52,993 nt of DNA, taken from assembly GCA_009777825.1 (NCBI GenBank), contig WRLA01000013.1, positions 1-52,993 of the forward strand. Reading direction: 5' to 3'. The notes below the pieces were generated by a model. The model was not told the origin of the DNA and made no database searches. It saw nothing but the letters and a program-made list of their open reading frames with translations. The position numbers and the translations under genes are program-made. Each line of letters starts with the position of its first letter. The stretch's first letter is position 1. This document shows, one piece after another, positions 12,049-47,601 of this stretch. This DNA comes from Bacteroidales bacterium. GTDB lineage: Bacteria; Bacteroidota; Bacteroidia; Bacteroidales; WRLA01.

Positions 12049-13839
12049 TTAAAACACTCCCACGCAATAAATCCATGTATCCGTCTTAACCACAATTTTC
12101 CCATCCGTAAACGCCGGCGTGGCATACGTTTTTTCACTTGTTTCAAAGGCATTGATAAGGCTGAAATCGCTTTTTGCGGAGAAGATAAACATTTTCCCGT
12201 CGGTGTCGCTGAGATAGATTTTCCCTTCTGCGATGACGGGCGATGAGTAAAACTCGGTACCCAACTCCATTGTTTTCAGCAAGTCGCCGGTTTGGGCGTC
12301 GAAAGTCGCTACCACGCCGTATGAGGTTGCCACAAAGAGAAAATCTTTTGCCGCTACCGGACTGGAGACTTCGGGGAGGAGGTCGTTGTTTTTCCAGAGC
12401 GTGGAGCCGTCTGCCGCATTGATGGCTATCAGCGTGGCGTATTCGCTTCCGCCGTAAACAACGCCGTTGGCGGCGGCAGGACTTGAGCCGACTTCTCCCG
12501 TCATACACTCCACACGCCAATACTGTTCGCCGTTATTCGGGTTGTAAGAGGTGATGCTCGGCGTTCCCATCAATATCAGTTGCGGTTTGTTGTTGACGAT
12601 TGCGATGATGGGTGAACTCCATGAGATCTTGTCGGGACGCTCTTTCACCCAGCGTTGGTTGCCGGTTTCCAAGTCCAACGCCATAACTCTTGGCGCAGTG
12701 CGGTTGTCGTACTGTATAATCACCGAGTTGCCGAAGACGAGCGGCGAGGAGGCATATCCGTAGTGGTTGTCGGGGACGCCGATGTTTTTTGCCCACAGTT
12801 GTTTTCCCTCCATGTCGGCGCAGATGACATCGCCGGTAGCGAAGATGGCGCACACCTGTTTGCCGTTGGTTGCTACCGTTGAGGCTGCCAATCCGGTGTC
12901 GTCCGTTGTTTTCGGCATTTGGCTTGGCGAACCCGGAATGTTTTTAGCCGTCAGCCGCCATAACTCTTTCCCCGAACTTAGTTCGTAGCAGTATATCTCG
13001 CGGGCGTCGTCGTCGGCTCCGGAAAAGAAGACTCTGTTTCCGTTGATTACCGGCGAGTTATAGCCTTTACGCGGCGTCTTCACTTTCCACAGGATGTTTT
13101 TGCCCGATGACAAGTCCCACGAGGTCGGAACACTCTTTGCGCTGCTTATGCCAAGGGCGTTGTTGCCTCGGAAACCATTGTAAGCCCCCCCAAGCCCTCC
13201 TGAAGGGGGGGGTGTGGGGAGGGTATCGGTTTTTTCTTGTACAGATTGTAAAGCGGTGTTCGTCTCTGTGATTAGTTCGGATTGGTAATCTGTGCTGTCT
13301 TCTCGTACCGATTGTAAATCGGTGTGTGCGGAAATATCGGTGCGTGCGAGGTCTTCAACACCCCCCCCTTCGGGGGGGCTTGGGGGGGCTATATATGGCG
13401 AAGTCAACACGGCGAACACAATTCCGGCTGCTGCCAAAAAGCCTGCTGTCCAAACGACGTATTTTCTGGCTTTCGACTTAATCAGCCAGTCGTCCACGGG
13501 GTCAATATCCTTATCGGGAATCTCTTTGCTCTTGGAAAAATAAATCCGCAGGCTTATCACCAACACCGCAACCATAACCGCCAAAATGATGACGCCCACT
13601 CTTAATCTGTTGATACTGATGAAGTAGGCTTTCCGTGCCAGCAGGTCTAACTCACGGATTTGTTCCTGCAAGAACGGGTTGTCGCCGTATTCTTCGTTGG
13701 CTTGTTTGAGATTTTCGAGCGCTTCCGACCGGATGATGTCCGTGCCGCTCACCTGAAAATAATTGGTTATGAGCATGACGGAGAAAGCGACTGCGAAAAT
13801 CGCGGAGACGATGGCTATGTTTCTTACTGTGTGTTTCAT
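12049..13839 (-). CDS. Membrane-anchored PQQ-like beta-propeller protein
   Basis: The N-terminus has three transmembrane helices (residues ~7-27, 75-97, 125-145). From about residue 225 a PQQ-type propeller begins, with repeats such as GKNILWKVKTPRKGYNSPVI, GKELWRLTA, GKQLWAKNIG, GNQRWVKERP, GSTLWKNNDL and GDLLKTMELG. Such propellers serve as scaffolds or quinone-dependent enzymes; no catalytic cofactor ligands can be assigned here. Residues ~149-218, linking membrane part and propeller, consist almost wholly of dispersed-repeat sequence. The ATG overlaps the stop of the 4Fe-4S gene as ATGA, so the two are translationally coupled and probably form one complex. Confidence 0.85.
   Translation of the reverse strand: MKHTVRNIAIVSAIFAVAFSVMLITNYFQVSGTDIIRSEALENLKQANEEYGDNPFLQEQIRELDLLARKAYFISINRLRVGVIILAVMVAVLVISLRIYFSKSKEIPDKDIDPVDDWLIKSKARKYVVWTAGFLAAAGIVFAVLTSPYIAPPSPPEGGGVEDLARTDISAHTDLQSVREDSTDYQSELITETNTALQSVQEKTDTLPTPPPSGGLGGAYNGFRGNNALGISSAKSVPTSWDLSSGKNILWKVKTPRKGYNSPVINGNRVFFSGADDDAREIYCYELSSGKELWRLTAKNIPGSPSQMPKTTDDTGLAASTVATNGKQVCAIFATGDVICADMEGKQLWAKNIGVPDNHYGYASSPLVFGNSVIIQYDNRTAPRVMALDLETGNQRWVKERPDKISWSSPIIAIVNNKPQLILMGTPSITSYNPNNGEQYWRVECMTGEVGSSPAAANGVVYGGSEYATLIAINAADGSTLWKNNDLLPEVSSPVAAKDFLFVATSYGVVATFDAQTGDLLKTMELGTEFYSSPVIAEGKIYLSDTDGKMFIFSAKSDFSLINAFETSEKTYATPAFTDGKIVVKTDTWIYCVGVF
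13183..13392. repeat. Cluster of in-frame repeats inside the PQQ-propeller gene
   Basis: Two GC-rich palindromic copies in opposite orientation (about 13183-13216 and 13359-13391) flank a third family containing the perfect palindrome ACCGATTGTAAATCGGT at 13307-13323 and a degenerate copy near 13242. On the minus strand they encode PPSPPEGGG, TDLQSVRED, TALQSVQEK and PPPSGGLGGA. All keep the frame. Confidence 0.85.
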
Positions 13840-33087: not shown

Positions 33088-34038
33088 ATGCAAGTAATCT
33101 ATGACATCGAACAAATCCCATCGCTCACGAAGCCCATTGTAACGGTTGGCATTTTCGACGGCGTACATTGCGGTCATCAGGAGATTTTCCGGCAGATGAA
33201 AGCCTTAGCCACGGAACCGAACCAAAAAACCGTCGCCATCACCTTCGAACCGCATCCGCGCATCGTGTTGAACAACAATCAGAACGACATCAGATTCATC
33301 AACATCCTTGAGAAAAAAATAGAACGTATCGCCCTGAGTGGCATTGATTATCTGCTCATTATAAATTTCACTCCCGCATTTGCCACTTTGTCGCCGGAAG
33401 ATTTTATCAGGGAATATTTGGTCAACAAACTGCGTATCGGTACTTTGGTCATCGGCTACGACCATCACTTCGGGAAGTCGCGCAGCGGGGATTACCACGA
33501 AATAGAACGGTTGGGCGTTGAATATGGTTTCGCGGTTGTCGAAGTCGGAGAGGTCTGTTGTGATGGCGATGTTGTCAGTTCAACAAGAATACGCGAGGCG
33601 CTGAAAAAGGGTGAGATAGAGAGCGCCAACAAATATTTGGGCTACCGTTACAGCATCACGGGAACGGTCGTTCACGGCAACATGCTGGGACGAAAGATGG
33701 GCTTCCCCACAGCCAACATCGCCCTGTCCGACCGCTACAAACTCATCACCGCCAACGGCGTGTACGCCTGTTACGTCTTAGTGGACGGAAAATGGTACGA
33801 GGGGATGGGAAATATCGGTTTCCGTCCGACCATCGAAAAAAGTTCGTTAACCGTTGAAGTCCACATCTTTAACTTCGACGAAGATATCTACGGAAAAACC
33901 ATTACCGCCGCCTTCGTCAAACGAATACGCGACGAAATAAAATTTCCCGACACCGAACACCTTAAACAACAGTTGGCGCAGGATAAAATCATGGTACAAG
34001 GGTGTATAAATGGCATCAAAAAACAACAAATAGCATAA
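33088..34038 (+). CDS. ribF: Bifunctional riboflavin kinase / FAD synthetase
   Basis: RibF phosphorylates riboflavin to FMN and adenylates it to FAD. The N-terminal nucleotidyltransferase motif is GIFDGVHCGHQEIF, with VITFEPHPR-like TFEPHPRIVL, YDHHFGKSRSGD and SSTRIREALKKG. The C-terminal kinase motif is GRKMGFPTANI, with GNIGFRPTI and VHIFNFDEDIYGK. Length (316) is normal. It lies in a short co-directional run with asd and the M28 peptidase gene. Confidence 0.96.
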   Translation: MQVIYDIEQIPSLTKPIVTVGIFDGVHCGHQEIFRQMKALATEPNQKTVAITFEPHPRIVLNNNQNDIRFINILEKKIERIALSGIDYLLIINFTPAFATLSPEDFIREYLVNKLRIGTLVIGYDHHFGKSRSGDYHEIERLGVEYGFAVVEVGEVCCDGDVVSSTRIREALKKGEIESANKYLGYRYSITGTVVHGNMLGRKMGFPTANIALSDRYKLITANGVYACYVLVDGKWYEGMGNIGFRPTIEKSSLTVEVHIFNFDEDIYGKTITAAFVKRIRDEIKFPDTEHLKQQLAQDKIMVQGCINGIKKQQIA

Positions 34039-34045
34039 TACGATT

Positions 34046-35011
34046 ATGAAGAAAATAATAATTCCATTAATTTTCATACTGACAACAATGACCGCTTGTG
34101 CTCAAAATCAAGCGAATTCATATATGCTTGCCTCACCTGATAATGATGTTGTTCAATCAGATAGTTTACGAATTGTTCAACATTTGAAAACGATTACAAA
34201 AACGGACGGTTATCGCAATTACCAAAATATTTCTTTGCTCAATCAGACCGCGGAATATATTTTTTCCGTCTTCCAACAATATGCGGATACCGTTTTTTAT
34301 CAACCCTATCCGGTAGAAGGGGTAACATATAAAAATGTGGTTTGTCGTCTGGGAAATACTAACCACAAACCACTTGTTGTGGTTGGTGCTCATTACGATG
34401 TTTGTGGAAATCAAGAAGGTGCGGACGATAATGCCAGTGGCGTAGTTGGTTTATTGGAATTAGTTCGCCTGCTCTCAAAAGAAAAATTGAATTATCCTAT
34501 TGAAATCGTAGCATATAGCCTCGAAGAACCTCCATTTTTCCGAACAGAATATATGGGAAGTTACATACACGCAAAATCTCTAAACGATGCGGGGACATCT
34601 GTTTACGGTATGATTGCTTTGGAAATGATTGGGTATTTCGATGATAAAGCCAAATCACAATCCTACCCGGTAAAAGTGATGAAAGTTGCTTACGGAAGAA
34701 CAGGAAACTTTATATTGCTTGTCCGGAAAACAGGAACAGGAAAATTTGCAAAAAATCTCTCTGATAGTTTCAAAGATTTAGCGACAATTGACACGCACAA
34801 TCTCAAAGCACCATCGAAAATACAAGGGATTGATTTTTCCGACCACTTGAATTATTGGAAATTCGATTACGATGCACTAATGATTACCAATACAGCATTT
34901 TATCGCAATTACAATTATCATCAAAAAACCGACATAATGGAAACATTAGATATTTCCAAAATGATGCAAGTGATTGATGCCACCGCTTTGGCAATAATTA
35001 ATCTAAAATGA
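34046..35011 (+). CDS. M28-family metallopeptidase, secreted
   Basis: This 321-residue aminopeptidase-like enzyme binds two zinc ions. A lipoprotein-type signal peptide ends LTTMTACAQ. The zinc ligands are visible in order: GAHYDV (His), GADDNASGVV (Asp), AYSLEEPPF (Glu pair), ALEMIGYFD region, and the late NYHQKTD (His). It likely trims peptides in the periplasm or outside. It begins seven bases after ribF. Base composition is more AT-rich than ribF, so it may be a later addition. Its stop lies ten bases before the inverted 22-bp repeat. Confidence 0.88.
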   Translation: MKKIIIPLIFILTTMTACAQNQANSYMLASPDNDVVQSDSLRIVQHLKTITKTDGYRNYQNISLLNQTAEYIFSVFQQYADTVFYQPYPVEGVTYKNVVCRLGNTNHKPLVVVGAHYDVCGNQEGADDNASGVVGLLELVRLLSKEKLNYPIEIVAYSLEEPPFFRTEYMGSYIHAKSLNDAGTSVYGMIALEMIGYFDDKAKSQSYPVKVMKVAYGRTGNFILLVRKTGTGKFAKNLSDSFKDLATIDTHNLKAPSKIQGIDFSDHLNYWKFDYDALMITNTAFYRNYNYHQKTDIMETLDISKMMQVIDATALAIINLK

Positions 35012-35020
35012 TAGAAAAGA

Positions 35021-35042
35021 AAATTTTAATGCGTTTGCCCTG
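35021..35042 (-). repeat. 22-bp junction sequence, inverted copy
   Basis: It is the exact reverse complement of 31110-31131 and of 41814-41835. Copies 1 and 2 therefore form inverted ends around a 3.9-kb segment holding a lipoprotein gene, asd, ribF and the peptidase gene. Confidence 0.85.
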
Positions 35043-35073
35043 TGCGACGTTCATGTGCATCGAATAAAATCAC

Positions 35074-35081
35074 TATCTTTG
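35074..35081 (+). promoter_or_regulatory. Promoter -7 box of the restriction-modification genes
   Basis: TATCTTTG, 29 bp before the ATG at 35111. Confidence 0.65.
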
Positions 35082-35110
35082 CAAAGATTTATTTTTAATC
35101 ATCGGCATAC

Positions 35111-37531
35111 ATGAAATACAGCAATATTCGAGAGGAAGAGTTGAAAAACAAAGTGGAACAGGATTTTTTCGGCAAGTTCGACTGCACCGAAATTATCAAG
35201 AATATTGATTTTGCGGTGAAAGATGGGGAGACGTATTTATTATGGGCAGAGGCAAAAAGAAACCGTGATGACATCCTTGCCATGCTCGCCCAACTTGTGC
35301 TGACCATCGGCAAAGCCCGCACTTTCGACGAAATATTGCCGCCGCCGTTTCTCGGCTGTTACGACAACGAAAAAATCGCTTTCGTGCCATACTCCGAAGT
35401 TCAGGATATTTTCTACCAAAACGACTTCAACTGGAAAGTTGCCCCCTCCGACCACGAAACACGCGAGTTTAAACAAATTTACGCACAGATAGAAAACGTT
35501 ATCCAAGCCGCTCCTTGGCAGACATATATCTTTGATTTTGAGAGAGATGAGAAGGAACTGAAACGGTTTATCCGTGAAAATTTCGTGGTGGGGAAAACGG
35601 AGACTTCCAAAATCCGTATAGACAAGAATAACTTTATTACCATCTATAACAAATGGATTGACGCGGTGAAACCGACAATAGTCGCTGATTGGGATTTGGC
35701 AAAGAAAGCCGGAATTATTGACGGGGATTTTTATCTCGCCGACCTGCTTTCCATAGAAAATGAAACCATCGGCGAGAAACTGCACGTACTCTTGAAGACT
35801 AAATATTACGAATTCGACAAAAAAAGATTAGAGACGGGTTTTTTCACAATTGACCGGGCTGACTTCAACGATAATCAAAAAGCACACACCCAATTTTGGA
35901 ACAAATATGACCGACCTCCCAAAGAAGAATACTGGAACTATATTGTTGATAGAAGGGATTTGATTGTGCCTCAAGATATACGCGAGCGTAAAGGAAGTTT
36001 TTATACGCCGGGCATCTGGGTGGAACTCTCGCAGAAATATCTTGCCGACGTGCTGGGTGAGGATTGGCAAGACGAATACCACGTATGGGATTGTGCCGCC
36101 GGAACAGGTAATTTGCTGGTAGGACTGACCAACAAATACAACATTTGGGCTTCAACGCTTGACAAGCAAGATGTGGACGTGATGAAATACCGCATACAGA
36201 ATGGCGCAAACCTCTTGGAAAGCCATGTATTCCAATTCGACTTCCTGAACGATGATTTTTCCAAACTTCCGCAAGGGTTGCAGGATATTATCAATGACCC
36301 GAAAAGGCGTGAAAAGTTGATTATCTATATAAATCCGCCGTATGCGGAGGCTGATAACAGAAAAGGTGAAAGAAGAATAGGGGTTGCTGAATCGCAAATA
36401 CACAAAAAATATTCCGAATTAATGGGATACACAAAAAGAGAACTTTATATTCAATTTTTAACAAGGATTTATAAGGAAATCCCAAATTGTAAAATTGGAG
36501 AATTCTCTAAATTAAAAGCATTGCAAGCGCCACGATTTTATGAGTTCAGAAATTTTTTCAAAGCAAAACTGAAAAGATGTTTTATTGTTCCTGCCGACAG
36601 TTTTGACAATGTAAAAGGACAGTTTCCTATCGGTTTTAAAGTTTGGGACACAGACATTAAGGCTGATTTTAAACATATAAAAGCGGAAGCTTTTAATTTG
36701 GAAAGAATGTTTATCGGATACAAAGAAATATGGAATTATGATAATCAAAAATTGATCAACGATTGGGTAAAAACATTCCGAAAATCAGATTTAGGCTCTA
36801 TTGCGACAATAATCGGAGTAGGCAGCGATTTTCAAAATCAAAGATTAGTGCGATTCGGAGAGCCAAACATGAAAGTCCCAGCCGATAATCATCACTGGCA
36901 AATCACAGCAAATAATTTAATAGAAACTTGTATTTACTTCACCGTTCGTAAAATCATCCCCGCCACTTGGCTCAACGACCGCGACCAATTCCTCTACCCC
37001 AACAACGGGTGGGAAACCGACAATGAATTTCAAAACGATTGTCTCGCTTACACATTGTTCAACAATAACATATCCTCAAAACACGGCGCAAACCACTGGA
37101 TCCCATTCACCGAAAACGAAGTAAACGCCTGCGATAAATTCGACAGCCATTTTATGATAGGTTTTCTCAGCGGAAAAATCATCCAAAACGGATATTCCAA
37201 CCTGTTTGAACAGGAAGAAGACAAATTCTGCATCAAACGCGAATTTTCAAAAGAAGCAACATCCGTTTTCGACGCAGGACGGGAATTGTGGCGATACTAT
37301 CACACCGCCATCTCCTCCCCCTTTGGGGGAGGTCGGGAGGGGGGGGCAGTAAACGCTTCACTATACGACATCCGCGAATACTTCCAAGGACGCAGCGACA
37401 AAGGCACAATGAACAACAAATCCGACGATGAAACCTATAACGAACTTATTGAAAATCTGCGCATTGCGCTGAAAACATTGGCTAATAAAATCGAACCGAA
37501 AGTGTATGAATATGGTTTTTTGAAAGAGTAG
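35111..37531 (+). CDS. Type IIG-like restriction-modification enzyme, copy 1
   Basis: This 806-residue protein combines nuclease and adenine methylase. Near residues 40-50 a PD-(D/E)xK-like core appears as YLLWAEAKRNRDD (ExK). The N6-adenine methylase domain has motif I WDCAAGTGNLLVG near residue 330, preceded by RKGSFYTPGIWVELS, and motif IV IYINPPYAE near residue 415. Residues ~420-640 are the variable, probably target-recognising part. The end (VNASLYDIREYFQGR) is conserved with copy 2. Residues ~734-746 (SSPFGGGREGG) come from a GC-rich palindromic repeat. No separate methylase or restriction subunit is adjacent. The alternative, an orphan methylase-like antiphage protein, is possible. 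Confidence 0.82.
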   Translation: MKYSNIREEELKNKVEQDFFGKFDCTEIIKNIDFAVKDGETYLLWAEAKRNRDDILAMLAQLVLTIGKARTFDEILPPPFLGCYDNEKIAFVPYSEVQDIFYQNDFNWKVAPSDHETREFKQIYAQIENVIQAAPWQTYIFDFERDEKELKRFIRENFVVGKTETSKIRIDKNNFITIYNKWIDAVKPTIVADWDLAKKAGIIDGDFYLADLLSIENETIGEKLHVLLKTKYYEFDKKRLETGFFTIDRADFNDNQKAHTQFWNKYDRPPKEEYWNYIVDRRDLIVPQDIRERKGSFYTPGIWVELSQKYLADVLGEDWQDEYHVWDCAAGTGNLLVGLTNKYNIWASTLDKQDVDVMKYRIQNGANLLESHVFQFDFLNDDFSKLPQGLQDIINDPKRREKLIIYINPPYAEADNRKGERRIGVAESQIHKKYSELMGYTKRELYIQFLTRIYKEIPNCKIGEFSKLKALQAPRFYEFRNFFKAKLKRCFIVPADSFDNVKGQFPIGFKVWDTDIKADFKHIKAEAFNLERMFIGYKEIWNYDNQKLINDWVKTFRKSDLGSIATIIGVGSDFQNQRLVRFGEPNMKVPADNHHWQITANNLIETCIYFTVRKIIPATWLNDRDQFLYPNNGWETDNEFQNDCLAYTLFNNNISSKHGANHWIPFTENEVNACDKFDSHFMIGFLSGKIIQNGYSNLFEQEEDKFCIKREFSKEATSVFDAGRELWRYYHTAISSPFGGGREGGAVNASLYDIREYFQGRSDKGTMNNKSDDETYNELIENLRIALKTLANKIEPKVYEYGFLKE
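37312..37347 (+). repeat. In-frame GC-rich palindrome in restriction-modification copy 1
   Basis: CTCCTCCCCCTTTGGGGGAG is a near-perfect palindrome, followed by GTCGGGAGGGGGGGGC. It encodes SSPFGGGREGGA just before VNASLYDIREYF, and copy 2 has a different version of the element at the same site. Confidence 0.85.
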
Positions 37532-37546
37532 AAAATAAAGGGATAT

Positions 37547-40057
37547 ATGAAATACGGCAATATTAGAGAGGAAGAGTTGAAAAACAGCGTTGCGCAAGAT
37601 TTTTTCGGGAAATTTGACTGCACAAAAATCATCAAAAATATTGATTTTGCAGTGAAAAATGGGGAGACGTATTTATTATGGGCAGAGGCAAAAAGAAACC
37701 GTGATGACATCCTTGCCATGCTCGCCCAACTTGTGCTGACCATCGGCAAAGCCCGCACCTTTGACGAAATATTGCCGCCACCGTTCCTCGGCTGTTACGA
37801 CGACGAAAAAATCGCTTTTGTGCCATACTCCGAAGTTCAGGATATTTTCTACCAAAACGACTTCAACTGGAAAGTCGCCCCCTCCGACCACGAAACCCGC
37901 GAATTTAAACAGATTTACGCTCAGATAGAAAAAACCATCAACACCACCCCTTGGCAAACATACATCTTTGATTTTGAGAAAGATGAAAAGGAATTGAAAC
38001 GGTTTATCCGTGAAAATTTCGTGGTGGGGAAGATGGAGACTTCCAAAATCCGTATTGACAAGAATAACTTTATCACCGTTTACGGAAAATGGCTCGAAAC
38101 GGTGAAGCCGACCATAATTGCTGACTGGGCTTTGGCAAAGAAAGCCGGAATTATTGACGGTGATTTTTATTTGGCAGATTTGCTGTCTGAGGCACAAAAT
38201 GATGGCTATTTCACCATCAAAGATAAATTGTCGGTTCTTTTGAAAGCCCGTTTTTATGAAACCAGCCGACATGTTAATGAAGCGGGAATGTTCACTACAT
38301 CGCGTGTAGAATTTTCCGACAATCAAAAAGCACACACGCAGTTTTGGGCAAAGTACGAACGTCCACCTTTGGAAGAATATTGGGATTATATCGTGGACCG
38401 CCGTGATTTGATTGTACCACAGGATGTAAGAGAGCGCAAGGGTAGTTTTTATACACCGAAAATCTGGGTAGAACTCTCGCAAAAATATTTATCAGAGGTG
38501 TTTGGAGAGAATTGGCAAGACACATATTACGTGTGGGATTGCGCTGCCGGAACGGGAAATCTACTCGCGGGATTGACCAACAAAAATAATATCTGGGCGT
38601 CAACTCTTGATAAACAAGATGTTGACGTGATGAAAGATCGAATTGAAAACGGCGCCAACCTTTGGGAACAACAGGTTTTCCAGTTTGATTTCTTGAACGA
38701 CGACTTTTTACCAATCTCAAAAGGCGGAAAATTGCCCGATGAACTTTTTGATATTATCTCCGATGAAAATAAACGTAAAAGATTGATTATCTATATTAAT
38801 CCGCCGTATGCGGAACATGGAAACAGAACTACTTTTGCAGGCAAGGGAGAACATAAAGCAAAAGTATCTACAACAAGTAAAGTTTATCGTGATTTTCAAA
38901 ATATTGTAGGGACTGCCACACGAGAACTTTATGCCCAATTCTTTTTGAAAATTTATAAAGAAATACCCGATGCTAAATTGGCTTCTTTCAGCACTCCGAA
39001 ATTTATTAACGCCCAAAACTTTTTAAAATTCCGAAATTACTTTAAAGCAAGTTTCTTAAAAGGATTCATTTGTCAGGCAAATACCTTTGATAATGTCAAT
39101 GGTCATTTTCCAATAGGCTTTTTAATTTGGAACTTAGAAGAAAGAAAAAATATCTCCAAAATAGACACAGATATTATTTTTTCTAATGCTGATTTAAAAC
39201 ATTGTTGGCAAACAGGAAAAAAATCGTTTTACGCAGTAAATGAAAAAATATTTATAAGTGATTGGCTAAGAGTGTTTTATGACAAGAAAAATGAAAAAAT
39301 CGGTTATTTGATCCTCCCTGGAGTTGATATGCAACAGCAAAATGGAGTATATATTACTTCGCAACCGACAAAAAGTGATGTTTTACAACACAAAACAACA
39401 GGTATTACCATATATAATATAATGGAAATATCCATTTATTTGGCAGTACGACAATGTATCGCTCCGAATTGGTTAAATAACCGCGACCAATTTCTCTATC
39501 CCAACGATGGATGGGAAACGGATGAAGAATTTCAAAACAATTGCCTTACCTACGCCCTATTTAATAACAACATCTCATCAAAACACGGCGTAAACCATTG
39601 GATACCATTCACCGAAGGCGAAGTCGGATCGAAAAGCAAATTTACAAGTCACTTTATGGCAAGTTTTCTCAGCGGAAAAATCATCCAAAACGGATATTCC
39701 AACCTGTTTGAACAGGAAGAAGACAAATTCTGCATCAAACGCGAATTTTCAAAAGAAGCGACATCCGTTTTCGACGCAGGACGGGAATTGTGGAAATACT
39801 ACCATGCCGCGCTTGGAACTTTTCCATCTTCGGGAGTTCTCTCCCCCTTTGGGGAAGCCGGAGGGGGTGGGGCAGTAAACGCTTCACTATACGACATCCG
39901 CGAATACTTCCAAGGACGCAACGACAAAGGCACAATGAACAACAAATCCGACGATGAAACCTATAACGAACTTATTGAAAATCTGCGCATTGCGTTGAAA
40001 ATATTGGCAAAGAAAATCGAACCGAAAGTGTATGAATATGGATTTTTGAAAAAATAG
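37547..40057 (+). CDS. Type IIG-like restriction-modification enzyme, copy 2
   Basis: This 836-residue paralogue starts 15 bp after copy 1. The nuclease part (YLLWAEAKRNRDD), motif I (WDCAAGTGNLLAG) and motif IV (IYINPPYAE) are all kept. DNA identity with copy 1 is extreme at the ends: 37659-37758 equals 35223-35322 for 100 bases. The central region after the NPPY motif, about residues 425-650, is quite different and contains its own blocks such as FKASFLKGFICQANTFDNVNG. This fits two enzymes with different DNA targets. Residues ~759-775 (FPSSGVLSPFGEAGGGGA) derive from a palindromic repeat. Both genes share one promoter. Confidence 0.82.
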   Translation: MKYGNIREEELKNSVAQDFFGKFDCTKIIKNIDFAVKNGETYLLWAEAKRNRDDILAMLAQLVLTIGKARTFDEILPPPFLGCYDDEKIAFVPYSEVQDIFYQNDFNWKVAPSDHETREFKQIYAQIEKTINTTPWQTYIFDFEKDEKELKRFIRENFVVGKMETSKIRIDKNNFITVYGKWLETVKPTIIADWALAKKAGIIDGDFYLADLLSEAQNDGYFTIKDKLSVLLKARFYETSRHVNEAGMFTTSRVEFSDNQKAHTQFWAKYERPPLEEYWDYIVDRRDLIVPQDVRERKGSFYTPKIWVELSQKYLSEVFGENWQDTYYVWDCAAGTGNLLAGLTNKNNIWASTLDKQDVDVMKDRIENGANLWEQQVFQFDFLNDDFLPISKGGKLPDELFDIISDENKRKRLIIYINPPYAEHGNRTTFAGKGEHKAKVSTTSKVYRDFQNIVGTATRELYAQFFLKIYKEIPDAKLASFSTPKFINAQNFLKFRNYFKASFLKGFICQANTFDNVNGHFPIGFLIWNLEERKNISKIDTDIIFSNADLKHCWQTGKKSFYAVNEKIFISDWLRVFYDKKNEKIGYLILPGVDMQQQNGVYITSQPTKSDVLQHKTTGITIYNIMEISIYLAVRQCIAPNWLNNRDQFLYPNDGWETDEEFQNNCLTYALFNNNISSKHGVNHWIPFTEGEVGSKSKFTSHFMASFLSGKIIQNGYSNLFEQEEDKFCIKREFSKEATSVFDAGRELWKYYHAALGTFPSSGVLSPFGEAGGGGAVNASLYDIREYFQGRNDKGTMNNKSDDETYNELIENLRIALKILAKKIEPKVYEYGFLKK
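39838..39872 (+). repeat. In-frame GC-rich palindrome in restriction-modification copy 2
   Basis: TCTCCCCCTTTGGGGAAGCC followed by GGAGGGGGTGGGGC encodes LSPFGEAGGGGA at the same place as the copy 1 insertion. The flanking coding sequence is nearly identical, but the element itself and its left flank differ. Confidence 0.85.
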
Positions 40058-40061
40058 CAAT

Positions 40062-41066
40062 GTGAGCCGGCACTATAACATCCCTATTTTCATCCCCGAG
40101 GCGGCATGTCCGCATCGCTGTATCTTTTGCCATCAGCAGAATATCACGGAACAGCGAAAACAGCCATCCATCGGCGATGTCATCACCATCGTAGAGCGTC
40201 ATTTGGCGACCATTCCGGAGGGCAGCGTGACGGAAATCGCATTCTTCGGCGGCAATTTCACCGGACTTTCCATTCCGCAACAGACAGCCTATCTGCAGTC
40301 AGTGCAACATTTTCTTCGTGAAGGGAAAGTCGCCGCTATACGTTGCTCTACACGACCGGATTATATTGACAATCAGATTGTTGAGTTGCTGCTCTCTTTT
40401 GGCGTGAAAATGGTAGAACTCGGAGCGCAATCATTTGATGATGAGGTGTTAAAAGCATCCGGACGGGGACATTCGGCGGATGACATTTATCGCGCCGTCA
40501 GCATCTTAAACAAATACCGGATGCCGTTCGGATTGCAAATGATGACCGGTTTGCCCTCCGACACGCCCGAAAAAGCACGGCAAACGGCGCAAGAAATCGT
40601 CCGTCTGCACGCCGAAAATACCCGCATTTATCCCTGTTTGGTCATTCGGAATACTGTGTTGGAACAGTTGTATCACAATCAGTTATACCAACCTCAAACG
40701 ATGGAAGAAGCCGTTGCGCTCTGTGCCGAGTTGGTCGCTTTTTTTGAGCAACACCGGATAAAGATTCTACGTGTCGGCTTACACCGCTCGGAGGGGTTTG
40801 ACAGTGGCGAAACTTTGGTGGCAGGTCCTTATCACCCGTCATTCAACGAATTGGTGGAGAGTTGTTTATGGAAGAACGAATTGGAAAAACATATCCGTTT
40901 CGGAATTTCGGAGAACATCCGCATACAAGTTCCCAAAGGCGCCTCCGGTCTTGCTTCGGGACACAGGCGATGCAACAGAAAATGGTTGGAACAGCACTTT
41001 AAAACCGTCCGTTTCATCGAAAACGAATCTTTAACAGAGAGAACTTGCCATGTTGATTATTGCTGA
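40062..41066 (+). CDS. Elp3-like radical SAM protein
   Basis: This 334-residue protein starts at GTG 40062, five bases after restriction-modification copy 2. The cluster motif CPHRCIFC lies at residues ~16-23, followed by EIAFFGGNFTGL, RCSTRPDYID, GVKMVELGAQSFDDEVL and FGLQMMTGLPSDTPEKA. This set matches the radical SAM half of the Elp3/YhcC-like family, several members of which modify tRNA; the acetyltransferase half is absent. The C-terminus (RTCHVDYC) is unassigned. It overlaps the next gene by 17 bp, so the two are coupled and may work together. Confidence 0.85.
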   Translation: MSRHYNIPIFIPEAACPHRCIFCHQQNITEQRKQPSIGDVITIVERHLATIPEGSVTEIAFFGGNFTGLSIPQQTAYLQSVQHFLREGKVAAIRCSTRPDYIDNQIVELLLSFGVKMVELGAQSFDDEVLKASGRGHSADDIYRAVSILNKYRMPFGLQMMTGLPSDTPEKARQTAQEIVRLHAENTRIYPCLVIRNTVLEQLYHNQLYQPQTMEEAVALCAELVAFFEQHRIKILRVGLHRSEGFDSGETLVAGPYHPSFNELVESCLWKNELEKHIRFGISENIRIQVPKGASGLASGHRRCNRKWLEQHFKTVRFIENESLTERTCHVDYC

Positions 41067-41736
41067 CAGCCGTATGCCCGCGCCGGCACGCCGACGTCTT
41101 GAAACGCTGGGAGAGGTGTTGTGGATGCCGCCACAAAAGCGTGTCTATCAAAGTATTGCTGCCCATCCCGATATTTTCTTCTGTCAGACGCCGGAAGGTT
41201 TTATCGTCGCTCCCAATGCGCCCGTCGAAATAACCGCAAAACTGATTCAATCCGGTGCAACCATCGTCGTCGGAGAGAAAAATGTAGGGGAAAAACATCC
41301 CGACACCGTTCCTTATAACGCCGTCTTCACCGCCTCGCTCTTCATCCACAACACCAAACTGAGCGACGAAACATTACTTCGACACGCCATCGGAAAAAAA
41401 CGCATCCACACCACGCAAGGCTATACGCGATGTAACCTGTTACCGCTCTCCGACACGGCTTTCCTCTGTTCAGACCGGAATATTGAACAAAACCTTGTAC
41501 GACACGGCGCAGACGTCTTGTTTGTCCGTCCCGAAGAGATTTTGCTTCCGGGCGTCCGCCATGGATTTATCGGAGGCTGTTGCGGCGTTTTCGGGAAAAC
41601 GGTTGTGGTCGTCGGCGCGCTTTCCAAACATTCGCAAGGAGGTGAGATAGAAAAGTTTTTGGAAAAATATGGAATGGAGATTATTGAGTTATACGATGGC
41701 GAGATGTGGGATGGAGGAGGGATGCTGTTCGCATAA
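41050..41736 (+). CDS. Conserved protein of unknown function, probably GME-fold (DUF6873-like)
   Basis: This 228-residue protein opens LIIADSRMPAPARRRLETLG, and has DIFFCQTPEGFIVAPNAP, HTTQGYTRCNLLPLSDTAFLCSD, GFIGGCCGVFG and GALSKHSQG. The repeated short beta-turn segments and the GGCCG motif suggest the amidinotransferase-like (GME) fold of DUF6873 proteins, often found next to Elp3-like radical SAM genes. No activity is known. It is coupled to the preceding gene by overlap. Confidence 0.6.
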   Translation: MLIIADSRMPAPARRRLETLGEVLWMPPQKRVYQSIAAHPDIFFCQTPEGFIVAPNAPVEITAKLIQSGATIVVGEKNVGEKHPDTVPYNAVFTASLFIHNTKLSDETLLRHAIGKKRIHTTQGYTRCNLLPLSDTAFLCSDRNIEQNLVRHGADVLFVRPEEILLPGVRHGFIGGCCGVFGKTVVVVGALSKHSQGGEIEKFLEKYGMEIIELYDGEMWDGGGMLFA

Positions 41737-41737
41737 A

Positions 41738-41810
41738 GGCTGTCTCATAAGTCGAAATTCTTTACCACAAAGGGCACACCCCTCCTTTGGTTCCCCCGAG
41801 GGGGTTTGTG
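41738..41810. repeat. Stacked dispersed repeats and possible IS end
   Basis: AAAGGCTGTCTCATAAGTCG (41740-41758 region) resembles terminal repeats of IS1182/IS5-like elements from memory. It is followed by the CTTTACCACAAAGGG repeat type and by the GC-rich palindrome CCTTTGGTTCCCCCGAGGGG (about 41784-41804). Confidence 0.55.
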
Positions 41811-41813
41811 CTC

Positions 41814-41836
41814 CAGGGCAAACGCATTAAAATTTT
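41814..41836 (+). repeat. 22-bp junction sequence, third copy
   Basis: CAGGGCAAACGCATTAAAAT continues with TTT and is shared with 31110-31131 and, inverted, 35021-35042. It lies exactly where the IS110 transposase fragment begins. Confidence 0.8.
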
Positions 41837-42284
41837 AGTAACTATATACGACAATCCGGTTATTGACTCCGAAGAAAAACTTAGCCAACAATACAAGTTG
41901 ATACTCTCTATTCCGGGTATTGGCATGCAAACGGCTATTTATCTCATCATGGCAACCAAGGGATTTGATGATTTTGATAATTGGAGGCAATTAGCCTGTT
42001 ATGCAGGGGTAGCGCCTTTTCCATATCAGTCTGGAACAAGCATACGGGGACGAAACAAAGTGCATCCATTAGCCGACAAAAAGTTGAAAAGCCTGCTCAA
42101 TATGTGTGCGATCGTCGCTATTAGGCACGATAAAGAACTCAAAACCTATTACACGCGAAAAGTCGAAGAAGGAAAAGCTAAATTGCTCGTAATAAACAAT
42201 GTCAGAGGAAAATTGTTGGCTCGGGCTTTTGCTGTAATTAATCGAAATTCGCCCTTTATAAATACATGTAAATTCGCATCTTAA
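41833..42284 (+). pseudogene. IS110-family transposase, C-terminal fragment
   Basis: About 150 residues of the C-terminal Transposase_20 domain remain. The family pattern is plain: LILSIPGIGMQTAIYLI, FDDFDNWRQLACYAGVAPF, YQSGTSIRGRNKVHPLADKK, LLNMCAIVAIRHDKELKTYY and KLLVINNVRGKLLARAFAVI. The N-terminal DEDD catalytic domain is absent, cut off at the 22-bp repeat. The open frame runs back to 41787 only through repeat sequence. IS110 elements use a bridge RNA encoded in their ends; with the left end missing, this copy should be inactive. Confidence 0.85.
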
Positions 42285-42375: not shown

Positions 42376-45300
42376 CTAATTAATAATCACTACCTTCCCC
42401 TGTTTCCCATCAGCCCGTATCAGGTATGAGCCCGGTTGCACATTGTCGAGCGTGATTGTAACGGGATTTTGAGTAGCGATGACGCTGCGCACACAGATGC
42501 CGTACTGATTGTAAACCAGCACACTACATCCTTCTGAGGCGCCTTCGACGGTGAACGAGTTGCCCGATATTACCGGGTTTGGATAGATGAACAACTTCTC
42601 GTCTGTGCCGGGCGGCGAAGTGTAGCCGGTGAGCGTTTTGTGGGTGGAGCAGAGGTCTCCGCGGTTTGAGGTGATCAACCGGAACATGTACCATGTCGGC
42701 GCCGGTTCTAAGAGGTCGGTGATGGCGGGACCTGCGGAGTAACTGAACTCGTTGATGGTGCGCGTTTCTTCCTCTTCGTCGCCGTTTTTGTACCACTGAC
42801 AGCCGGTTACGGCGTAGCCTTCGGTTTCTAATCTACGGAGGTTGAGCATGAAGGTGTTGTTCCACAGGGTGGGCGCGTAGGTGTCGAAGTCTAAGACATT
42901 GAAGTTGGCGGTTACGGTTACGTCGTCCGTAACTTCAAACTCGTAGATTTTGCTTTTGGAGACCTCTTTGTCTTCTATCGTCCAGTTGGAAAAGCGGTAG
43001 CAGTCGTCCACAAAGACCTCGACGCGGGCGGTGTCGCCTGCGGCGTACATGCCGGAGCCGGTGGTATAACCGTAATTTCCATCGCTAATTTCGGCGATGA
43101 CGTTGTATAATAGTATGTCGAAATTCGCTACCAAAGTACGGGATTCCGTTACGGTGAACGAATACTCGGCATCATTGGAAACCGGTGCATCATCTTCCGT
43201 CCAGTTGATAAATTTGTAGGTTGGTTCGGGGATTGCTTTCACAGTTACGAAGTCGTCTAAGTGGTACATGCCATCGCCGGTGGTTGTGCCGCCTTCTGTC
43301 GGATTGGCGATGGTGATGATTTGGTAGGCTTCGAGTGCAAAGTTCGCGACTAAGATGCGGGGCGACATGATGATAAAGGTAAACTCATCATCGGTAGAGA
43401 TTTCGTCGCCGTATTCCGTCCAATTGATGAATACATATCCGGATTCGGGGATTGCTTTTGCCGTAACTTCTTCTCCGCAGGGATGGTCGCCGCTGCCGAT
43501 GACTGTGCCGCCATCCGGCGGATTGGCGTAGAGGGCGAGGTTGCGGGTTTGTTGTTCGAAATTGGCTGTCAAAGTGCGCGATTCCATGACGGTGAAGGTG
43601 TAGGAGGAGGTGGTGGCGACCTCTTCGTCGTCTTCTGTCCAGTTGAGGAAAGTGTAGCAGTCGTTGACGGGTTCTGCTGTTACGGTGATGGCGTCTCCGC
43701 AGAGATGGTCGCCGTCGCCGGAGAGTATGCCACTGTTTAACGGATTGGATAACAGTTTGATAGTTAGGGTTTCTAATTCAAAGTTGGCGACCAAGTTGTG
43801 GGAGTCTAATACGGTAAATTCGTATTCGGCGTCGTCGGAGACCCATTCGCCGTCTTCCGTCCAGTTGACGAAGATGTAACATTCTGCCGGTGTTGCCGTT
43901 ACGATGATGTCCGTGTTACAAGTGATGCCGTTAGCGCCGCCGGAGACGGAGCCGCCAATACCCGGATTCGCTGATAAAACGACGTTACAGATTTTCACTT
44001 TGAAGTTCGCCACCAAATCGCGGTCTTTGGTCAGTTCAAAGATATAGGGATTTTCGTCGGAGACGAACTTGCCGTTTTCCGTCCAGTTGACAAATTCGTA
44101 ACATTCGTAGGCTGTGGCTGTTACGGTGATTTCTTCGCCGCAGGGGAGGTTCTCGTCGCCGCCGGAGACTTCGCCATATTCTTCCGGTTTTGCCGAGACA
44201 ACGACGTTGTAATATCTTTGTTCAAAGTTGGCAACTAATGTGCGCGGTTCGGTTACAACAAACGAAAACACAGGATTTACCCCGACCTCGTTGCCGTCTT
44301 CCGTCCAGTTGACAAAGTCGTAACAGGGGTTGGCGGTTGCTTTGAGGGTTGCCGTCTCACATTCGTTATAGATGCCGCCGCCGGTAACGGTACCGCCCTC
44401 TTCCGGATCTACTAAAGCGATGATGTCGTGGGTTATACGGACGAAATTCGCTACCAAATGACGGGATTTTGTTACCGTAAAATCGTAATCAGCATCGTCG
44501 GAAGCCCAAACACCGTCTTCCGTCCAGTCAACAAATTCCCAGCATCCGTTGGCGATGGCGCTTACGGTGGCGGGGTCGTCGTAGGCGTATGTTCCGTTGC
44601 CGAGGACGTTACCACCTTCCGGCGGGTTTGCCTCGACGGTGATTTTGTAAAATTCCTGCTCGAAATTCGCAACCATAGTACACGATTCTGTTACTTCGAA
44701 CTGATAAAAAGCGGCGTAAGATTGATGAACGTTGTCTTTCGTCCAGTTGATGAAGTGGTAGCCGTTGTTGGCGTATGCTTTCACGATGGCGGTTTCGCCA
44801 CAGTCAAAGATGCCGTCGGCGCTGTTGATGGTAACGGTGCCGCCGTTCGGGTCAGGATTGGGCAAAACTTCGACTTCAAACGTTTTCAACGCGAAGTTGG
44901 CGTACAAAACGTGATGTCCGGTTACTATCAAGTCGTAGTACGGGTCGGTACTCAGCGATACGCCGTTTTCCGTCCAATCCACAAAGTCGTAACAGTCGTT
45001 AGGAACTGCCCAGATGGGTATCGTGTCGCCGCACAGATGGCTGCCGCCGCCGCCGACAGTTCCGCCGCCCGTCGGACTTGGCAAAACGACGACATCGTAA
45101 CTGAACCTGTCAAAGTTGGCAACCAAAATGCGGTCTTTGGTCACGGTGAAAGTATAATCTGCGTTCTTGGAGACTTCCACGTTGTCTTCCGTCCAGTTGA
45201 CGAAGAAGTAACACGGCTCGGCAACCGCCGAAACGGTGATGTTTTCGCCGTAAGGATAACTTCCCGCGCCGAAAACGTCGCCGGCAACTAACGGTAACGG

Positions 45301-47601
45301 CGGATTTACAAGCAGTTCGATATCATAGATTTTCGGTTCGAAGTGTGCCGTCAATAGGCGGTGTTCGGCTGCGATAAAGGTGTAATCGGGGGTGTTAGCG
45401 ACTTCGTCGTCGTCTTCCGTCCAATTCACGAAGTCGTAACCATACGCCGGCACTGCTGTTACGGTTACATCCGTTCCGCAGTCGTGGTTGCCGCCGCCGT
45501 AGGTCTCGCCGCCTTCGTCGGGGTCTTCCTCCGTGAGGATGACGTATTGCTTCGGGATGAAGTTCGCTATCAACGTACACGGCTCAACCGCAATAAAGAG
45601 ATAGATCGGATTGTTGGAGACTACCTCGCCGTCTTTCGTCCAGTTGACGAAGATGTAACAGGTGTCGGCTATCGCCGTTACGATGACGGGCGTGCCGTGC
45701 GGATAGGAGCCGCCGCCGGTAGCGTCATTGTCGCCGACCGCCGGAGAGGGGATGACGATGATGTCGTAGAGTGGCGTAAAATTTGCTACCAAAGTACGAG
45801 ACTTGGTTGCGGTAAAGGAGTAGGTGGTGTTGGTTTCTACCGGCGTGCCGTTTTCCGTCCAGTTGGAAAAGGCATAGCCGGGGTTGGGTGTGGCGGTTAG
45901 ATTAACTGTTTCGTCTGCTTTATAACAGTCGGATCCCGTTACAACACCGCCAAGAGGGGGCAAAGGGGTAGCGGAAATATCAGCGCCGATGTGTAAGTCG
46001 CCTTCAATAATTGTCGGCGCTCCGCCGTCATCGGGATAAACTTCCAATGTTATCAAATAGTTCCCGACGGCGAATGTCTTACTCCATGTCTCCTGATTTT
46101 GCGCCGGAAGATACTCCGTTCCGTCAATATACCAGTGTAAACTCTCTATTTCTACGCCCAGCGCATCTATTTCGGCACGAAAATCAACCTCCGGTTCACA
46201 AAAAACTTCTCCGTCCAAACTCTGACAGTGGATGTCGTTGGCGTAAAATCCTGCTGTTAAATTGCGCATGGCGGAATAGGCGGGGTAATAATAGGAGGAT
46301 GCATAGCCAATTCCATAGCAATAAGTGATAAGCCCTTCCTGATTGGTAAAGTGGTATGATGCAGTAGCATCGGTTAACGGCATAATATAGAACGACATAC
46401 CCGCTTCGATATTATCAACCCAACTGCCGCCACTTAGATCGGTGGGCGGCGCCCCGCCAATAGAAACTTTCGTATTCTCTTTCGTGGCTGCTGGAGTAAC
46501 CACAATAACACAATGGTCATTCAATTGTATCCATCCTTCGGGTATAAAAGGGGCTATCAGTGCGCTACCAACCGATTGTTCTATTGCAGGTATCCAACAT
46601 TGTGCGGGAGCGGATATATACCCCATTCCATAATATGTGCCATTTGTCAGATAAGAACAAACCCCAACGGGCTTATCGGCTTGAATATGACAACCATTAT
46701 CATCTAAGGCAATATCCAACTCAACAAACTCACCGGCTTGTAAACCGGTAAGCGTCGTTTGCGCATCCGGTACGCCGGTTCGAATAACGCCACCGGTTTG
46801 TGTAATATCGGTATTATTTTGTGAGGCAACGATACGTACAATATCATGAGCACAATGTGAAACCGGCACAAAAAAGTTCTTGCCCCAAGTATTGACCGGA
46901 GCCAATTGTTGCATTAAGCAACTAGCATATGATGGTTCAGTCAAAGGTATTGAAAGTATTGGATTAACCGCAAACAAAGCAACAGGATTATCGGCAGTAA
47001 TCTGTGATCCGGTCATATCCATATTTGGACTGGCATTTCGGTAATACACCTGCCCCGCATCAAGTGTTGTTTCCAGAAGCCCATTATGATACAGTCCTGT
47101 ATTATTTTGAGTAGCCACAACAGCATACGCATCGTGATAAATAGGATTCATTTGAGGTGGCGCGTATGATATTTGGTAATACTCTGTACTTAGCGCTGTT
47201 ACCGGCAAAATATTAGTGGCATCAACCGAAGCGATAACTTGATTCAGTGCATAAACCGTAACAGGCTCGGCGCTGGTGATATGTATGCTGTAATCAGTTA
47301 CGGTTGTCTCATAATAAAAATTATTATACACTGCTTGTCTCTGTTCATTGTTAAGGCTATAAGTATAAACCTCTTGTGCATTAATCTCAAAATCTTTATA
47401 TGTTCCTAAATTAGTAAAGTAGATGGTTCCGGTAGTTGGCAAATTTCCGCTTACGATACGAATTTGCAAGTCAAGATCAGAGGATGGTTGCCCTCCGTTG
47501 CTGCCAAAAGTCAACCAAAAATCCTGTCCCTCGGTGGTCTGCGCCTGCATGGTGGAAATGCCCGACAAGAGGGCTATTAGTAAATAAAGTACTTTTTTCA
47601 T
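42376..47601 (-). CDS. Giant T9SS-secreted surface protein with 14 divergent InlB repeats
   Basis: This 1,741-residue protein begins with a signal peptide (LYLLIALLSGISTMQA) and an IgGFc-binding-like region (GQDFWLTFGSN ... VTDYSIHITSAEPVTVYALNQ; later FVPVSHCAHDIVRIVASQNNT). A PKD-like stretch lies near residues 480-540. Residues ~547-1,570 hold 14 divergent InlB B-repeats of ~70 residues, each with an F-[VILS]-[ND]-WT-[EKI]-[DENY] core and a VANF-like end. The last ~75 residues are a type A T9SS sorting domain (KLFIYPNPVISGNSF ... PGSYLIRADGKQGKVVIIN). The T9SS exports such proteins and anchors many at the surface. An adhesin role is plausible. A TAACTTTG box lies upstream. Confidence 0.9.
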   Translation of the reverse strand: MKKVLYLLIALLSGISTMQAQTTEGQDFWLTFGSNGGQPSSDLDLQIRIVSGNLPTTGTIYFTNLGTYKDFEINAQEVYTYSLNNEQRQAVYNNFYYETTVTDYSIHITSAEPVTVYALNQVIASVDATNILPVTALSTEYYQISYAPPQMNPIYHDAYAVVATQNNTGLYHNGLLETTLDAGQVYYRNASPNMDMTGSQITADNPVALFAVNPILSIPLTEPSYASCLMQQLAPVNTWGKNFFVPVSHCAHDIVRIVASQNNTDITQTGGVIRTGVPDAQTTLTGLQAGEFVELDIALDDNGCHIQADKPVGVCSYLTNGTYYGMGYISAPAQCWIPAIEQSVGSALIAPFIPEGWIQLNDHCVIVVTPAATKENTKVSIGGAPPTDLSGGSWVDNIEAGMSFYIMPLTDATASYHFTNQEGLITYCYGIGYASSYYYPAYSAMRNLTAGFYANDIHCQSLDGEVFCEPEVDFRAEIDALGVEIESLHWYIDGTEYLPAQNQETWSKTFAVGNYLITLEVYPDDGGAPTIIEGDLHIGADISATPLPPLGGVVTGSDCYKADETVNLTATPNPGYAFSNWTENGTPVETNTTYSFTATKSRTLVANFTPLYDIIVIPSPAVGDNDATGGGSYPHGTPVIVTAIADTCYIFVNWTKDGEVVSNNPIYLFIAVEPCTLIANFIPKQYVILTEEDPDEGGETYGGGNHDCGTDVTVTAVPAYGYDFVNWTEDDDEVANTPDYTFIAAEHRLLTAHFEPKIYDIELLVNPPLPLVAGDVFGAGSYPYGENITVSAVAEPCYFFVNWTEDNVEVSKNADYTFTVTKDRILVANFDRFSYDVVVLPSPTGGGTVGGGGSHLCGDTIPIWAVPNDCYDFVDWTENGVSLSTDPYYDLIVTGHHVLYANFALKTFEVEVLPNPDPNGGTVTINSADGIFDCGETAIVKAYANNGYHFINWTKDNVHQSYAAFYQFEVTESCTMVANFEQEFYKITVEANPPEGGNVLGNGTYAYDDPATVSAIANGCWEFVDWTEDGVWASDDADYDFTVTKSRHLVANFVRITHDIIALVDPEEGGTVTGGGIYNECETATLKATANPCYDFVNWTEDGNEVGVNPVFSFVVTEPRTLVANFEQRYYNVVVSAKPEEYGEVSGGDENLPCGEEITVTATAYECYEFVNWTENGKFVSDENPYIFELTKDRDLVANFKVKICNVVLSANPGIGGSVSGGANGITCNTDIIVTATPAECYIFVNWTEDGEWVSDDAEYEFTVLDSHNLVANFELETLTIKLLSNPLNSGILSGDGDHLCGDAITVTAEPVNDCYTFLNWTEDDEEVATTSSYTFTVMESRTLTANFEQQTRNLALYANPPDGGTVIGSGDHPCGEEVTAKAIPESGYVFINWTEYGDEISTDDEFTFIIMSPRILVANFALEAYQIITIANPTEGGTTTGDGMYHLDDFVTVKAIPEPTYKFINWTEDDAPVSNDAEYSFTVTESRTLVANFDILLYNVIAEISDGNYGYTTGSGMYAAGDTARVEVFVDDCYRFSNWTIEDKEVSKSKIYEFEVTDDVTVTANFNVLDFDTYAPTLWNNTFMLNLRRLETEGYAVTGCQWYKNGDEEEETRTINEFSYSAGPAITDLLEPAPTWYMFRLITSNRGDLCSTHKTLTGYTSPPGTDEKLFIYPNPVISGNSFTVEGASEGCSVLVYNQYGICVRSVIATQNPVTITLDNVQPGSYLIRADGKQGKVVIIN

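What the first reader, a model, noticed from the sequence alone, without database searches (positions are those of the whole stretch)
35111..40057. Tandem restriction-modification genes with identical ends and divergent specificity regions
Stretches of up to 100 bases are identical between the copies (35223-35322 and 37659-37758; similar runs near the 3' ends), while the part after the NPPY motif differs strongly. This suggests ongoing gene conversion at the ends and diversified DNA recognition. Recombination between copies could swap or delete specificities, giving a switchable defence or epigenome.
Basis: partly seen in the sequence, partly recalled or inferred. Interest (0 to 1): 0.65.

Follow-up and report, generated by a model that had tools for sequence, protein, structure and literature searches.

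The report
Two tandem DNA-cutting defence genes
Two neighbouring bacterial genes each appear to encode a one-piece enzyme that marks the cell's own DNA and cuts foreign DNA; they share nearly identical ends but carry unrelated "address-reading" middles, a sign that this enzyme family exchanges parts by recombination to change its targets.

Summary
Two intact tandem ORFs (806 and 836 aa, 15 bp apart) share 100-, 97- and 73-bp exact runs at their ends and diverge after NPPY. Each looks like a single-chain Type IIG/IIL restriction-modification enzyme: N-terminal PD-(D/E)XK nuclease, gamma-class adenine methylase, C-terminal target recognition domain (TRD). No Pfam model matches either copy convincingly; the identification rests on predicted folds and invariant catalytic residues. 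The ends are alike at DNA level: silent differences are 28/165 (N) and 9/108 (C) against 61/132 in the methylase core. Trees group the copies at both ends but reject this for the TRD (p-AU 3.4e-49); each TRD's nearest relative lies in another genome. Across 75 sequences in 40 genomes, the nearest relative is in the same genome for 28 of 38 C-ends but 3 of 39 TRDs. So recombination that decouples TRDs from ends looks family-wide. "Switchable" is not supported: no inverted repeats, no adjacent site-specific recombinase found, both frames open, probably one operon. A genus-mate has the empty site. TRD exchange in Type IIG backbones is known in Helicobacter; the tandem, multi-copy version is a variant.

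The parts
35111..37531 (+). copy 1 (P1), putative Type IIG/IIL R-M enzyme, 806 aa
   Evidence: ORF; family alignment; fold of its paralogue
37547..40057 (+). copy 2 (P2), putative Type IIG/IIL R-M enzyme, 836 aa
   Evidence: ORF; model and fold match
35111..35605 (+). P1 N-terminal PD-(D/E)XK nuclease domain (about aa 1-165); predicted catalytic D33, E47, K49
   Evidence: invariant D33/E47/K49; N-domain fold of P2 and 29 relatives
37547..38041 (+). P2 N-terminal PD-(D/E)XK nuclease domain (about aa 1-165)
36083..36118 (+). P1 methylase motif I (VWDCAAGTGNLL)
   Evidence: sequence; family motif
36332..36343 (+). P1 methylase motif IV NPPY
   Evidence: sequence
38798..38809 (+). P2 methylase motif IV NPPY
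   Evidence: sequence; family motif
36356..36964 (+). P1 divergent block after NPPY including the variable part of the TRD (limits approximate)
   Evidence: identity profile; tree
38822..39466 (+). P2 divergent block after NPPY including the variable part of the TRD (aa 426-640, limits approximate)
35223..35322 (+). 100-bp exact run, partner 37659-37758
37659..37758 (+). 100-bp exact run, partner 35223-35322
37161..37257 (+). 97-bp exact run, partner 39663-39759; start of the homogenised 3' end
39663..39759 (+). 97-bp exact run, partner 37161-37257
37311..37346 (+). in-frame insert (…SPFGGGREGG…) from a repeat found elsewhere in the genome; ends in an 8-G tract (37339-37346)
39817..39872 (+). 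in-frame insert of the same repeat kind at the same codon position in P2 (limits approximate)
35074..35081 (+). TANNTTTG box, like the Bacteroidetes -7 promoter element (recalled consensus), 30 bp before the P1 start
34039..40061 (+). interval (M28 peptidase + P1 + P2) that has no counterpart between ribF and the radical-SAM gene in a genus-mate

Best explanation
Two tandem, probably co-transcribed, single-chain Type IIG (IIL-like) restriction-modification enzymes with different target recognition domains. Each chain would recognise its own asymmetric site, methylate one adenine there with its gamma-class methylase and, if the site is unmodified, cut at a distance with its N-terminal PD-(D/E)XK domain. 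Having both gives two specificities at once. The copies share a frame (nuclease end and C-terminal end) that homologous recombination keeps alike or that recombination used to replace the central methylase-TRD block (about codons 205-706); the TRDs belong to old lineages found in other genera. Shown: intact frames, catalytic residues, predicted folds, mosaic history. Inferred: activity, two motifs, co-expression, RecA-type homologous recombination.
For: Fold: whole model nearest DrdV (Z 18.5, 439 residues aligned but rmsd 18.1, i.e. domains displaced), LlaGI Z 16.9 (5.0 A, 337), M.TaqI Z 15.4, BpuSI Z 14.8, MmeI Z 14.7; N-domain alone nearest BpuSI Z 8.2 (3.3 A, 131), DrdV 7.4, EcoR124I HsdR 6.8, BsaXI 6.8. 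D33 in 57 of 57, E47 and K49 in 58 of 58, NPP in 64 of 64 and Y in 63 of 64 family sequences that cover the position. Mosaic: P1-P2 identity 91.7% in the N segment (rank 1 of 1035 pairs), 31.6% in the TRD segment (rank 970 of 1035); silent-site contrast; trees: sister at N (98) and C (98), rejected in TRD p-AU 3.4e-49. Family: nearest relative in same genome N 19/33, M 15/36, T 3/39, C 28/38; without the window 17/31, 15/34, 3/37, 26/36. Empty site in genus-mate G002.
Against: No Pfam, NCBIfam or PADLOC model matches either copy above its threshold; best are a PADLOC MTase_II at E 0.007 and unrelated weak hits, and only 1 of 27 relatives reaches PF02384 at E 0.009. The N-domain has no significant Foldseek hit by itself (best E 0.14), and Z 7-8 is close to what models without clear matches reach. 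The methylase segment does not reject a P1-P2 clade (p-AU 0.47), so the left limit of the exchanged block rests on silent sites. Trees were of the quick kind. Activity and motifs were not measured.
Confidence: 0.83

Rival explanations
1. Plain duplication, then fast divergence of the TRD by point mutation under selection; no recombination needed.
For: Ends are near-identical and the copies are adjacent; duplicates of equal specificity would be redundant.
Against: Each TRD is far closer to one in another genome (P1 68% to L003, P2 76% to the third copy in L016) than to its neighbour (32%); P1-P2 clade rejected for the TRD; silent sites in the methylase core are as different as between genera.
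Confidence: 0.05
2. Switchable (phase-variable) R-M locus: recombination or slippage turns specificities on and off within a population.
For: Direct repeats up to 100 bp could recombine; an 8-G tract sits in copy 1 and a slip of one base would end the chain at 746 or 773 aa.
Against: No inverted repeats in 34000-41500; no recombinase among the seven flanking genes scanned, apart from an IS110-type transposase fragment; both frames open; direct-repeat recombination only deletes or amplifies. The 8-G tract comes with a dispersed repeat and two other 8-base G/C tracts occur in the window.
Confidence: 0.12
3. The two genes arrived separately and their ends were homogenised afterwards by gene conversion (order reversed from TRD replacement in a duplicate).
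For: Silent divergence differs between the two ends (28/165 N, 9/108 C; Fisher P 0.047) and is patchy, as with several conversion tracts.
Against: Borderline statistics; the shared repeat insert at one codon position in both copies and in no other of the family sequences compared fits duplication as well as conversion.
Confidence: 0.4
4. Inactive relics or non-R-M methylases (for example BREX PglX-like).
For: Brx/PglX structures are among the matches (8zek Z 14.1, 9ewz Z 14.1).
Against: Predicted nuclease domain with invariant residues, intact motifs; no BREX genes among the flanking genes scanned; varied housekeeping neighbours in relatives.
Confidence: 0.05

Closest known systems
DrdV and MmeI (Type IIL single-chain R-M enzymes)
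   Same: Nuclease, methylase and TRD in one chain in the same order; best structural match of the whole model (DrdV) and MmeI also matched.
   Different: No sequence match to any solved structure in the single-sequence search; 806-836 aa against about 1010 modelled residues in DrdV; tandem paralogues.
BpuSI (Type IIG)
   Same: Best match of the isolated N-terminal nuclease domain (Z 8.2) and a match of the methylase part (Z 14.8).
   Different: Sequence relationship not detectable.
Type IIG methylase backbones with exchangeable TRDs in Helicobacter pylori (PMC10423294, passages seen)
   Different: There the exchange is between alleles of strains; here it is seen between tandem and dispersed paralogues inside one genome.
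[quoted passage not shown] pylori (PMC3077401, passages seen)
   Same: Repeats flank TRDs and allow them to move.
   Different: Concerns separate S subunits with two TRDs, not whole R-M-S chains in tandem.
Unannotated homologue on H. pylori plasmid pUM157
   Same: 44.5% identity over 95% of P2.
   Different: Found in three pieces with no listed gene under the match, possibly broken; single copy.

Membership tests
Type IIG/IIL restriction-modification enzyme | nuclease, methylase and TRD in one polypeptide in that order | tested here: met
   models and fold matches, (predicted structures only)
Type IIG/IIL restriction-modification enzyme | PD-(D/E)XK catalytic residues | tested here: met
   D33 57/57, E47 58/58, K49 58/58 of sequences covering the position
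Type IIG/IIL restriction-modification enzyme | gamma-class adenine methylase motifs X, I, IV in order before the TRD | tested here: met
   GS(F/Y)(F/Y)TP, DC(A/C)AGTGN, NPPY; motif names recalled
Type IIG/IIL restriction-modification enzyme | one-strand methylation of an asymmetric site and cleavage at a fixed distance | not testable with these tools
   needs methylome and cleavage assay
Invertible phase-variable R-M locus | inverted repeats joining expressed and silent parts | tested here: not met
   0 inverted pairs in 34000-41500
Invertible phase-variable R-M locus | adjacent site-specific recombinase | tested here: not met
   7 flanking genes scanned with Pfam, only an IS110-type transposase fragment
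Slippage phase-variable R-M gene | mutable simple repeat in the frame with variable length among cells | tested here: inconclusive
   8-G tract in P1 present; length variation not observable without reads
TRD exchange between R-M backbones | like flanks with unrelated TRDs whose nearest kin lie on other backbones | tested here: met
BREX (PglX) | companion brx genes | tested here: not met
   none among the flanking genes scanned

The most novel reading that the evidence does not exclude
In Bacteroidales of insect guts this otherwise unmodelled Type IIG family is kept in several copies per genome, tandem and dispersed, as a recombining repertoire: shared ends act as exchange points, truncated neighbours (for example the nuclease-less copy in L030) act as TRD donors, and populations carry many specificity combinations, so the locus works as a slow diversity generator for defence and epigenome.
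Probability: 0.15. Interest if true: 0.65.

Novelty: new variant of a known kind. Interest (0 to 1): 0.42.

Why it matters
It gives a clean natural case of decoupled evolution inside one R-M polypeptide: ends that follow the genome, TRDs that do not. If the TRD block can be exchanged at the mapped limits, the family is a ready source of paired enzymes with known frame and different targets, useful for reading TRD-to-motif rules and for testing how phage pressure maintains several specificities in one cell. The family is also almost invisible to Pfam, NCBIfam and PADLOC, so defence surveys built on those libraries are likely to miss it.

Tried and rejected
Pfam, NCBIfam, PADLOC on both copies and Pfam on 27 members gave no convincing family. 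A profile search of solved structures returned only weak Rab/Ras hits at E 0.004 or worse over the TRD; taken as chance because the fold and motifs are of a methylase. phmmer of P2 found no chain. Phage records held no relative. Site-specific inversion was looked for and not found. A conserved partner gene was looked for in 72 of 114 listed neighbouring ORFs of relatives: no Pfam family in more than 2 of 72 (25 of 143 families shown). A long target duplication at the insertion was not seen in the repeat search. BREX membership rejected for lack of companions. Contig breaks inside relatives (15 of 40 loci end in the gene) suggest shared sequence but were not used as evidence.

The within/between-genome comparison used 69 of the loci fetched by then, chosen by me for coverage of multi-copy genomes, 77 sequences, 75 after removing identical ones; loci of viral contigs and several fragments were not entered.

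Full report
What is there. The window is contig C13 of a 2.48-Mb, 90-contig assembly, 69% complete. Its relatives in this gene family are mostly insect-gut (judging by recalled isolate naming) Bacteroidales assemblies, so I take the host to be of that group; the genome itself is unnamed. ORFs 35111-37531 (P1) and 37547-40057 (P2) lie head to tail, 15 bp apart. The reported 100-bp identity is exact; eight further exact runs of 29-97 bp lie in the outer parts of the genes. No further copy was found in this incomplete genome.

What the proteins are. No curated family fits. A model of P2 from 27 aligned relatives (mean pLDDT 77, pTM 0.58) matches R-M enzymes and adenine methylases: DrdV, LlaGI, M.TaqI, BpuSI, MmeI. 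The DrdV match spans nuclease and methylase but with an rmsd of 18 A, so the domains agree and their placement does not. The N-terminal 203 residues modelled alone (pLDDT 83) match the nuclease domains of BpuSI, DrdV, EcoR124I HsdR and BsaXI (Z 8.2 to 6.8), although Foldseek alone gave nothing significant. The predicted catalytic D33, E47, K49 are invariant in all sequences that cover them (57, 58, 58), and motifs X, I and IV are kept. The order nuclease-methylase-TRD in one chain is that of Type IIG/IIL enzymes.

How the two copies differ. In four segments P1 and P2 are 91.7, 77.2, 31.6 and 75.4% identical (N, methylase, TRD, C), ranking 1, 480, 970 and 6 among 1035 pairs of 46 sequences. Silent sites show that the ends are alike as DNA and the centre is not. 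The switch is sharp at codon 706-707 and less so near codon 205. Quick maximum-likelihood trees put P1 and P2 together for both ends (98 each), cannot decide for the methylase segment (p-AU 0.47), and reject it for the TRD (p-AU 3.4e-49). P1's TRD goes with L003 (68%), P2's with the third copy of a three-gene array, L016 (76%). Those TRD kinships are old: silent sites between them are saturated (0.45 and 0.41).

Is it general? In 24 genomes that gave loci, 14 hold two or more matches, fragments counted apart. Tandem arrays occur elsewhere: three full copies in L016, a full copy followed by a nuclease-less methylase-TRD copy in L030, a full copy followed by one lacking residues 38-361 in L006. 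Over 75 sequences from 40 genomes (19 with more than one), the mean within-genome identity exceeds all 500 label shuffles for N, methylase and C segments, but not for the TRD (76 of 500 shuffles reach it). The nearest relative is in the same genome for 19/33 N, 15/36 M, 28/38 C and 3/39 T segments, and this holds without the window. So ends evolve with the genome and TRDs do not. Selection against redundant TRDs and recombination both fit; the tree conflict within single genes requires recombination.

How it got there. Genus-mate G002 has asd, ribF, radical-SAM gene and DUF6873 gene in the same order with about 57 bp between ribF and the radical-SAM gene; in the window an M28 peptidase gene, P1 and P2 fill that place. 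Neither genus-mate has the family or the peptidase. Gain here or loss there cannot be told apart with three genomes. In relatives the genes sit beside varied housekeeping genes with no shared partner.

How it probably works. One promoter-like box precedes P1 and 15 bp separate the genes, so I infer one transcript and two enzymes of different specificity acting together. Methylation would be on one strand of asymmetric sites and cutting downstream, by analogy with Type IIL enzymes (recalled). The recombination would be ordinary homologous recombination between direct repeats: conversion keeps the ends alike, unequal exchange deletes or adds copies, and incoming or paralogous DNA can replace the centre. 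This diversifies over generations; it is not a reversible switch.

Against the literature. Papers seen: passages of PMC3077401, PMC3983042, PMC10423294, PMC7379913, PMC12707154, PMC5903667, PMC10333322. TRD movement in Type I, III and IIG systems is established, including within Type IIG fusion backbones in H. pylori (PMC10423294). In the listings of my searches I saw no title or abstract start describing tandem whole Type IIG genes with homogenised ends; the library lacks most subscription papers, so this is no proof of absence.

Noticed in passing
37311-37346 and 39817-39872: Both copies carry an in-frame insert of a dispersed GC-rich repeat (core found at 9 places in the genome with up to 1 mismatch) between the conserved YYHA and VNASLYDIR; other genomes have different inserts at the same loop (NFAKV..NFGKV type in G012, G037, G171; NFPSF.NLESL type in G401). 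The loop looks like a tolerant site for repeat insertion.
   Followed up: partly
37339-37346: 8-G tract in the P1 frame; loss or gain of one G would end the protein at 746 or 773 aa. Two more 8-base G/C tracts at 13205-13212 and 13361-13368.
   Followed up: partly
L030:10405-11958: Second tandem copy without the nuclease part but with methylase and TRD open, starting at the end of the full copy; possibly a methylase-only enzyme or TRD donor.
   Followed up: partly
41787-42284: Fragment of an IS116/IS110/IS902-type transposase (Transposase_20) downstream of the locus.
   Followed up: no
34046-35011: M28 peptidase gene that is part of the interval absent from genus-mate G002.
   Followed up: partly
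42376-47601 (- strand): 1741-aa protein made of many diverged repeats ending in a C-terminal sorting-like domain (seen in the ORF list).
   Followed up: no
L175:4001-6900 (H. pylori plasmid pUM157): Relative of the family in three pieces where PLSDB lists no gene; possibly a broken R-M gene.
   Followed up: partly
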